DNA from: Prevotella sp.
GTDB lineage: Bacteria; Bacteroidota; Bacteroidia; Bacteroidales; Bacteroidaceae
NCBI GenBank assembly: GCA_017474515.1
Contig: JAFVHN010000042.1
Coordinates: 1 to 46,338, forward strand
Length of the DNA: 46,338 bases
Direction of reading: 5' to 3'
In this document: positions 3,213 to 15,743 of the stretch, piece after piece
Layout of the letters: each line of letters begins with the position of its first letter
How positions within the stretch are numbered: the stretch's first letter is position 1
Notes under the pieces: generated by a model
Database searches by the model: none
What the model saw: only the letters and a program-made list of their open reading frames with translations
Told to the model about the DNA's origin: nothing
Program-made: the position numbers and the translations under genes

Positions 3213-3218
3213 CTGATG

Positions 3219-3614
3219 TGGACCTGGTGGGAATCGAACCCACGTCCGCACAAGGAAACCATGTGCTTTCTACATGCTTATTCCGGACTGAATTTTCGTG
3301 ATGCTGCAAGACCCGGACCACTGGGCAACACCCTTATCCCCTAAATTTCATCAGACTGTCGGGGCCCGGCCTGACTATTTCCGATTTCACTGCGCCGCTG
3401 GGTCCTCAGATTCGGAACAACACCCTTGGAGCGACGTCTCGTTCTCCTACCTTGTAAGAGAATAAAGCCGATGACCTACTGTGCTTCGATCAAGCTGCGA
3501 GAGCATACGAATTGTTGCCAATTAATTTTTCGACCGAGTTGTTTTAAGAGTTCACAGTCTTCACTCCACATGCTTACACACCATTTCGTCTTGCCGTCAA
3601 ATCCTGTCAAGCCC
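3219..3614 (-). ncRNA. ssrA: Transfer-messenger RNA (tmRNA)
   Basis: The tRNA-like ends are visible. The 5' GGGCTTG (3614-3608) pairs with CAGGTCC (3226-3220), followed by discriminator A. The T arm is GTGGG-TTCGATT-CCCAC. The 5' strand continues ACAGGATTTGACGG, the typical tmRNA D-like region. The tag frame reads GGC AAC AAT TCG TAT GCT CTC GCA GCT TGA (3519-3490), giving GNNSYALAA, which ends in the protease-recognised ALAA and starts with Gly as in other Bacteroidales tags. The remaining length is consistent with pseudoknots. CCA is not fully encoded (ACA follows the stem). The RNA rescues stalled ribosomes together with SmpB. A TACCTTTG promoter lies just upstream and an intrinsic terminator just downstream. 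Confidence 0.95.
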
Positions 3615-14732: not shown

Positions 14733-15455
14733 CTAAAAGGCATATCCTAAACTTAATAGAATCTGATTTGAGTAGGAGTCTTCTTCTTCGTCTATTGAAG
14801 AAATACCTTTTTGATAACTTAAATCAATCACCCAGTGATTATACCAAAGACCGATGCCACCAATTGGCCCAATATCGTATTTGTTATATTTGGCACCATA
14901 GTCTTTCAAATCGTTAAGTCCTATAGTTTTTGTTATCTTTGTGTCGTCTGAAGATGTTATAATTTTATAAGAACCAGCGAAGTCACAACTAACGAATAAA
15001 CCTAAATGGAAATCCAATGCTGTGTGATTACAAAGTTTAACAATATAACCGACGTTGGTTGGGGCAATTTGAGCTTTGAAAGCGGTAAATCTCGTTTTGT
15101 TCTTTAGGTTGTTGGTGCTTTCCAACCATTCTTCAGCCGTTCTGAAACCACGCATGCCTGCAGTTACATTCAAACCATAATAGAAAGGGCTTGTCCCAAA
15201 AGGCAAATACAAACCCAATGTGAGATTTCCTCCCCATGCATTTTTATATTTTCCATAACACTTTTGCCTAGCCCATTCTTTTTCAGAATTCTCTAAACCA
15301 GATCCTGAAACGTTGCTAAGGCTTACGCCACTTCTTACAATCCATACATTTTTGTCATTAGTAAATCCAACTGGCAGTGATGAAACTTGTGCCTTTGAAA
15401 TAAGTCCTAATGAACCGAGAATGGATAAAACTAAAAGACTCTTAATCCTTTTCAT
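14733..15455 (-). CDS. Small outer membrane beta-barrel protein, unassigned
   Basis: 240 residues. An N-terminal signal peptide ends near LISKAQ. The mature part alternates short beta strands with turns (NLTLGLYLPFG, YYGLNVTAGMRGF, DFHLGLFVSCDFAGSYK, GIGLWYNHWVIDLSYQKGI) and ends QILLSLGYAF, with the C-terminal aromatic residue typical of outer membrane barrels. It resembles porin-like or OmpW-like small barrels of Bacteroidetes, with no closer assignment. The coding sequence is clearly more AT-rich than its neighbours, and AT-ending codons are common, which suggests recent acquisition. No TAnnTTTG box is visible in the 65 bp before the ATG. Read-through from the structured RNA just upstream is possible. 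Confidence 0.75.
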   Translation of the reverse strand: MKRIKSLLVLSILGSLGLISKAQVSSLPVGFTNDKNVWIVRSGVSLSNVSGSGLENSEKEWARQKCYGKYKNAWGGNLTLGLYLPFGTSPFYYGLNVTAGMRGFRTAEEWLESTNNLKNKTRFTAFKAQIAPTNVGYIVKLCNHTALDFHLGLFVSCDFAGSYKIITSSDDTKITKTIGLNDLKDYGAKYNKYDIGPIGGIGLWYNHWVIDLSYQKGISSIDEEEDSYSNQILLSLGYAF

Positions 15456-15520
15456 ACTTTTTCTTTTTTCCTTATTAGTAATTCTTAATTGTCTTTACCC
15501 TACAACTGCACTAACTCTTG

Positions 15521-15707
15521 GAAAAAAGAAAGCGCAGACTTCTGTCATACGCTTCTCGGGCCTTCCACAGCCTCTAACATCCTATGACGAGGTCCACGCT
15601 TATAGCATGAACTCCATGGATGTTAGTATTTTCTGCTCTTAGGCTTGTCTGATGTGGAAGTTTGAGAAGCGATTGAGCAAATAAAAATAGTGCTTCTTAT
15701 GAAAACA
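15521..15707 (-). ncRNA. ssrS: Candidate 6S RNA (rod-like structured RNA)
   Basis: The transcript has a consensus promoter (15713-15743) and a U-rich end (TTTCTTTTTT, 15531-15522). Five stems nest along one rod: AAGAAGC (15698-15692) with GCTTTCTT (15533-15526, one bulge); CGCTTCTC (15671-15664) with GAGAAGCG (15557-15550); CTTCCAC (15660-15654) with GTGGAAG (15568-15562); AGCCT (15645-15641) with AGGCT (15573-15569); CTAACATCC (15626-15618) with GGATGTTAG (15582-15574). A terminal stem-loop caps it. Asymmetric bulges of 8 and 14 nt sit on the 5' strand mid-rod. Size (about 187 nt) and shape suit 6S RNA, which binds RNA polymerase holoenzyme. Bacteroidales have a 6S-like family known as Bacteroidales-1, and membership is inferred. 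No protein frame explains the pairing. Confidence 0.68.
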
Positions 15708-15712
15708 CAATG

Positions 15713-15743
15713 CAAAAGTACATAAAAACTTTGAAATTCCAAA
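15713..15743 (-). promoter_or_regulatory. Consensus promoter of the 6S-like RNA
   Basis: Minus strand TTTG (15743-15740), exactly 19 bp, TACTTTTG (15720-15713) followed by CA. It is among the best consensus matches in the window. The predicted start is near 15707. Confidence 0.82.

What the first reader, a model, noticed from the sequence alone, without database searches (positions are those of the whole stretch)
15521..15707. Rod-shaped 6S-like RNA with a textbook promoter next to an AT-rich gene
Five nested stems (7, 8, 7, 5 and 9 bp) cover almost the whole 187 nt, with bulges mid-rod and a capping loop, between a TTTG-N19-TACTTTTG promoter and a U-rich end. This is the shape expected of 6S RNA, which is poorly described in Bacteroidales. 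It is not beside rplT, which I recall as the frequent location of the Bacteroidales-1 family, so it may be a second or divergent copy. The AT-rich barrel gene downstream has no visible promoter and may be expressed by read-through.
Basis: partly seen in the sequence, partly recalled or inferred. Interest (0 to 1): 0.78.

Follow-up and report, generated by a model that had tools for sequence, protein, structure and literature searches.

The report
Switch-like RNA leader, not 6S
The folded RNA is real, but rather than a 6S RNA it is one copy of a widespread, apparently undescribed family of messenger-RNA leaders that sits in front of exported-protein genes in Prevotella and relatives and looks built to switch them.

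Summary
The rod is real, on the minus strand, under a Bacteroidetes-type promoter. It is not 6S: Rfam 15 has no match, and the same genome holds a full-scoring Bacteroidales-1 RNA elsewhere. A covariance model from seven homologues matched 194 of 398 genomes of the genus, 105 of 301 of the family and 11 of 247 of the order; stricter samples of class and phylum matched only the window's own genome. One genome has eight copies. In 91 of 104 distinct copies a same-strand reading frame starts 33-134 nt downstream (random positions 36%); 79 of 91 encoded proteins look exported, against 52 of 189 control ORFs. All 33 rod pairs show two-sided changes. Apical strand B has two conserved partners, A and the 3' strand C. 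Start regions tend to be complementary to the 5' linker or, as in the window, to the U-tract. Best reading: a cis-acting, riboswitch-like leader of accessory surface-protein genes. The switching is inferred and its trigger unknown.

The parts
15713..15743 (-). promoter TTTG-N19-TACTTTTG
   Evidence: position; TAnnTTTG at the 5' end in 77 of 104 copies
15690..15708 (-). 5' hairpin at the inferred transcription start
   Evidence: start site inferred from the promoter
15674..15689 (-). conserved U-rich linker L ending in GCUCA
   Evidence: alignments
15664..15671 (-). P1 5' strand
15653..15660 (-). P2 5' strand
15627..15650 (-). one-sided bulge with GAGC (15633-15640), which can pair with GCUC of L
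   Evidence: GCUC:GRGC paired in 57-58 of 58 rows, almost without variation
15618..15626 (-). P3 5' strand
15604..15611 (-). strand A, 5' side of the apical hairpin
   Evidence: A:B covariation, (helix 5)
15583..15601 (-). strand B, pairs with A or with C
15574..15582 (-). P3 3' strand
15562..15569 (-). P2 3' strand
15550..15557 (-). P1 3' strand
15529..15549 (-). strand C, alternative partner of B
15520..15528 (-). U-rich tract after C; in the window complementary to the region before the ATG
15474..15516 (-). 3' hairpin between the rod and the start codon (AGUUAGUG at 15509-15516 with UUACUAAU at 15474-15481)
   Evidence: over 77 copies; window pairs
15456..15471 (-). A-rich start region GGAAAAAAGAAAAAGU, complementary to the U-tract
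14733..15455 (-). downstream gene, 240 aa, N-terminus like a signal peptide, AT-rich
   Evidence: no Pfam match; no homologue in 199 other genomes of the genus

Best explanation
The element is a cis-acting, riboswitch-like mRNA leader. Transcription starts at the 5' hairpin, the rod P1-P3 folds, and the exported-protein gene follows on the same transcript. Strand B at the top of the rod has two conserved partners: A, which closes the apical hairpin, and C, the 3' strand followed by a U-rich tract. The start region of the gene is complementary in many copies to the 5' linker L or, as in the window, to the U-tract after C. I infer that A:B leaves C and the U-tract (or L) free to mask the start region (OFF), and that B:C ties up the C side and frees it (ON). 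B:C plus the U-tract could instead end transcription, which would reverse the direction. Shown by comparison: the family, its place before genes, both B helices, a tendency to start-region complementarity. Inferred: one transcript, switching, its direction, and a ligand or protein as trigger.
For: Family: with 0 of 344 and 0 of 295 other genomes in class and phylum samples at E up to 1e-4. Place: 91 of 104 copies followed by a same-strand frame at 33-134 nt, 1456 of 4000 random positions. Exported proteins: 79 of 91 against 52 of 189; at 150 aa or more, 71 of 78. AT-rich genes: 32 of 32 loci. Rod and A:B: 93.9% of cells paired, 33 of 33 pairs with two-sided changes, 555 such cells against 160.8 shuffled. 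B:C: 90.4% paired, 10 of 15 pairs, 38 cells against 10.3; own against swapped -18.96 and -16.5 kcal/mol; both helices kept with other letters in L104, L106, L107, L110, L111. Start region: L own -8.0, swapped -6.76, 0 of 200; U-tract -6.71 against -6.27, 2 of 200, window -14.4. 3' hairpin -10.1 against -8.3.
Against: No expression data. A fold in which B:C replaces the rod is about 10 kcal/mol worse than the rod (rod better in 55 of 59); both together would be a sterically demanding pseudoknot. Much of B:C is near-invariant (one pair formed in only 23 of 57 rows). L:start pairing at -10 kcal/mol or better is in 29 of 96 copies, swapped 15.5 on average; start regions of other genes average -7.1 with L; the window is weak for L (-4.8). 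The U-tract effect over all copies is small. Related copies share both partners; with 14 non-redundant copies the linker test gives 14 of 500 and the U-tract 1 of 500. 13 of 104 copies lack a frame at the usual distance. The best-scoring copies were sampled.
Confidence: 0.58

Rival explanations
1. A static structured leader: it protects the mRNA or sets a fixed translation level for exported proteins, with no switching.
For: The rod with A:B is the better fold in 55 of 59 copies, and position and export bias need no switch.
Against: B keeps two mutually exclusive partners with compensatory changes, which a static rod does not need.
Confidence: 0.22
2. A free, trans-acting small RNA of about 185 nt that ends at the U-tract and happens to lie before genes.
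For: Own promoter and a U-rich tract after strand C (U 0.66 against 0.29).
Against: Same-strand reading frame at 33-134 nt in 91 of 104 copies, a further supported hairpin between the U-tract and the ATG, and start-region complementarity to the leader.
Confidence: 0.12
3. A second or divergent 6S RNA that binds RNA polymerase.
For: Rod shape, length and own promoter.
Against: No Rfam 6S or Bacteroidales-1 match; a full-scoring Bacteroidales-1 elsewhere; one-sided bulge; up to eight copies; position before genes.
Confidence: 0.03
4. A DNA-level mobile repeat (MITE-like) with inverted ends.
For: Dispersed copies; linker and start region look like inverted repeats in some copies; adjoining genes AT-rich.
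Against: Fixed orientation and distance to a gene, a promoter at a fixed place, covariation with G-U pairs, one copy in the window's genome, none of 39 viral contigs with the linker word matching the model.
Confidence: 0.03

Closest known systems
6S RNA (RF00013) and Bacteroidales-1 (RF01693)
   Same: Rod-like RNA of about 180 nt with its own promoter. That Bacteroidales-1 is the Bacteroidales 6S is recalled; passages of PMC7366714 report a Bacteroides 6S RNA with product RNAs.
   Different: No covariance-model match; one-sided bulge; several copies per genome; sits before reading frames.
Riboswitches with strand-exchange expression platforms
   Same: 5' leader, conserved core, one strand with two exclusive partners, start region complementary to leader strands.
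   Different: No ligand known; no Rfam match; genes behind it are diverse exported proteins rather than one pathway.
Ribosomal-protein leaders (e.g. L20, L10)
   Same: Structured 5' leader acting in cis.
   Different: Not before ribosomal-protein genes; spread over unrelated accessory genes.
Candidate structured RNAs of human microbiomes (PMC8040213; passages seen)
   Same: Cis-regulatory candidates found by covariation in gut bacteria.
   Different: No candidate in the passages matches in size, place and genes; the supplementary list could not be read, so overlap is not excluded.

Membership tests
6S RNA | Match to the RF00013 or RF01693 covariance model | tested here: not met
   RF01693 matches another contig of the genome instead
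6S RNA | Open-promoter-like central bubble on both strands | tested here: not met
   the large bulge is on the 5' strand only; the 3' strand is continuous there
6S RNA | Binding of RNA polymerase and product RNAs | not testable with these tools
   needs pull-down and RNA-seq
riboswitch or cis-regulatory leader | Conserved RNA structure with compensatory changes | tested here: met
riboswitch or cis-regulatory leader | Fixed place upstream of and on the same strand as a gene | tested here: met
   91 of 104 copies, random positions 1456 of 4000
riboswitch or cis-regulatory leader | Alternative exclusive pairings tied to terminator or start region | tested here: inconclusive
   A:B and B:C both conserved; link to the start region holds in part of the copies; B:C with the rod melted is the weaker fold
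riboswitch | Specific binding of a small ligand | not testable with these tools
   needs probing or binding assays

The most novel reading that the evidence does not exclude
A new class of riboswitch, spread through gut and rumen Bacteroidales, in which one signal sets the expression of a scattered, largely accessory set of surface and secreted proteins through a B-strand exchange coupled to masking of the start codon.
Probability: 0.3. Interest if true: 0.9.

Novelty: new variant of a known kind. Interest (0 to 1): 0.74.

Why it matters
One recognisable leader before many unrelated, AT-rich, exported-protein genes would define a regulon that gene annotation does not show, and would point to a common signal for the accessory surface proteome of Prevotella and relatives. 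It is directly testable: a reporter fusion with mutants in strands A, B and C decides whether it switches.

Tried and rejected
6S and Bacteroidales-1 membership: rejected. Rfam at the gathering threshold on 20 loci that each hold a member: 0 matches. Phage origin: 39 viral contigs carried the 16-base linker word, none matched the model. Linker masking of the start codon as a universal mechanism: rejected, strong in 29 of 96 copies and weak in the window. B:C with the rod melted as the ground state: disfavoured by energy. Barrel gene: single-sequence fold failed; no homologue in 199 other genomes of the genus, so no alignment could be made. Literature: ten searches of the held open-access library; I recognised no description of this element in their listings. 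Papers opened, passages only: PMC2864571, PMC7366714, PMC8040213, PMC6429828. The 2014 survey of 6S RNAs is not held.

Limits and dropped rows. The 104 copies are the distinct cores among 113 that became loci, mostly best-scoring matches. Copy numbers are lower bounds, since 6 to 11 candidates per genome were scored. The weak second match in L053 was left out but is in A3 and. One search used 96 copies, one search used 77 for the 3' hairpin, one search used 82. Pfam was run on 80 of the 91 downstream proteins. Control ORFs are the longest non-overlapping frames of 150 aa or more in L040-L079 and may include some that are not genes. In one search B was defined as the best partner of C, which favours B:C. 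One search's alignment was fitted to a related structure, which favours it; its measure 'further pair types' was reached by 39 of 500 shuffles.

Full report
What is there. The rod-shaped RNA is real and lies on the minus strand. A TTTG-N19-TACTTTTG promoter sits at 15743-15713. The inferred transcript starts near 15708 with a small hairpin, passes the linker UAUUUUUAUUUGCUCA (15689-15674), the rod (P1 15664-15671 with 15550-15557, P2 15653-15660 with 15562-15569, P3 15618-15626 with 15574-15582, plus an apical hairpin), a 3' strand (15549-15529) and a U-rich tract, and reaches the ATG of a 240-aa gene at 15455. The 187 nt fold with z -4.25 on the minus strand and z -4.19 on the plus strand, so the strand rests on promoter, gene and relatives. 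The leader up to the gene start has z -5.19.

It is not 6S. At the gathering threshold Rfam finds only the tmRNA in the window, and at E up to 10 two eukaryotic families far below their cut-offs at this place. The same genome holds a full-scoring Bacteroidales-1 RNA on another contig (131 bits) and no RF00013 match.

It is a family. A DNA search of 60 genomes hit the window's own and 5 others, all of the same genus, with 6 copies. Their alignment gave a consensus structure in which 33 of 59 predicted pairs had a two-sided change. A covariance model from the seven sequences matched 194 of 398 genomes of the genus at E up to 0.01, and at E up to 0.001 105 of 301 of the family, in 15 of 30 genera, and 11 of 247 of the order; these totals include the window's own genome, and some order-level matches are weak (28-49 bits). 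A second model at E up to 1e-4 matched only the window's own genome among 345 of the class and 296 of the phylum; both samples also held family members without a match and were run with stricter filters. Among 38 nearest relatives it matched 9, all of the genus. Named carriers among fetched contigs include Prevotella sp. UBA2456, UBA6994 and RGIG2735 and several uncultured Prevotellaceae and Bacteroidaceae, many from rumen. Contig lengths shared with G229, G151 and G202, genomes of the window's genus, make Prevotella the likely genus; this is inference. Twenty loci that hold members gave no Rfam match.

Where it sits. In 104 distinct copies I looked for the first same-strand ATG that opens a frame of 60 aa or more (or 40 aa or more cut by the end of the stretch). 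It lay 33-134 nt away in 91, further off in 9, and 4 had none. By eye several of the 13 exceptions have a short frame at the usual place. The same test at random positions of L040-L079 succeeds in 1456 of 4000. Of the 91 proteins 79 have a signal-peptide-like start by a simple hydropathy rule, against 52 of 189 other ORFs of those loci; among proteins of at least 150 aa, 71 of 78. The gene has lower GC than the mean of the other ORFs in 32 of 32 loci tested (40.5% against 50.8%). Pfam matches in 80 of the 91 proteins are few: BspA-type leucine-rich repeats in 12, Ig-like domains in 3 (Big_2) and 3 (Big-like), single cases of carbohydrate-binding, sorting and other domains. The window's gene has no Pfam match and no homologue in 199 other genomes of the genus.

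Covariation. On 57 distinct rows of A3 the rod and apical hairpin have 93.9% of cells paired, 33 of 33 pairs with two-sided changes and 555 such cells against 160.8 in shuffles; sliding the partner gives at most 42.5%. The alignment was fitted to a related structure, which favours this. Helix B:C was not part of the fitted model: 90.4% of cells paired, 10 of 15 pairs with two-sided changes, 38 cells against 10.3, at most 58.6% when slid; much of it is near-invariant. Own B:C duplexes average -18.96 kcal/mol and swapped ones -16.5. In the distant copies L104, L106, L107, L110 and L111 the letters of A, B and C change and both helices survive. B thus has two conserved partners. The local hairpin with A averages -14.2 kcal/mol, B:C -19.0, and B:C is stronger in 101 of 104. 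But a fold in which B:C replaces the rod is about 10 kcal/mol worse (rod better in 55 of 59). Either the exchange happens at the apex while the rod stays, a pseudoknot unproven in space, or during transcription, or with help.

The start region. The linker is more complementary to its own start region than to swapped ones (-8.0 against -6.76, sd 0.20, 0 of 200 swaps, 96 copies); start regions of 120 other genes average -7.1. Energies of -10 or better occur in 29 of 96 own pairs, and in 15.5 on average (at most 23) when swapped. In L098 and L111 both sides differ from the usual letters and still match. The window does not use this pairing (-4.8), but its U-tract pairs with the A-rich stretch just before its ATG (-14.4 kcal/mol, second of 82 with a near tie; also in the fold). 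Over 82 copies the U-tract effect is small (-6.71 against -6.27, 2 of 200); in 14 non-redundant copies swaps reached the own value in 1 of 500 (U-tract) and 14 of 500 (linker). A hairpin between U-tract and ATG is supported over 77 copies (-10.1 against -8.3, best of 200 swaps -9.1). GCUC of the linker can also pair with GRGC in the bulge in 57-58 of 58 rows, nearly without variation.

Interpretation. The most economical reading is a cis-acting leader with alternative pairings that gates the expression of exported, accessory genes by masking the start region and perhaps by termination at the U-tract. One continuous transcript, the direction of the switch and its trigger are inference. Novelty: no Rfam family matches, and ten searches of the held library did not turn up a description; supplementary lists of earlier motif screens could not be read.

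Noticed in passing
L001:1501-1682 (G000:C66:40316-40497): Full-scoring Bacteroidales-1 RNA of the window's genome (131 bits), a ready reference for true 6S in the same organism.
   Followed up: partly
window 3216-3614: tmRNA gene on the minus strand (RF00023, 123 bits).
   Followed up: no
window 14733-15455: AT-rich, apparently exported 240-aa protein with no Pfam match and no homologue in 199 other genomes of the genus.
   Followed up: partly
L048, L049, L057, L058, L029, L120: A recurring leader-linked protein family, N-terminal ATLSHxGxxxxxYGxxAL, without Pfam match where scanned (L048).
   Followed up: no
G706:C38:48213-48389 and 49352-49527: Two copies of the leader about 1 kb apart on the same strand.
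   Followed up: no
L062/L063 and L064/L072: The same leader with the same following genes recurs with different further neighbours in different genomes, as if leader and genes move together.
   Followed up: no
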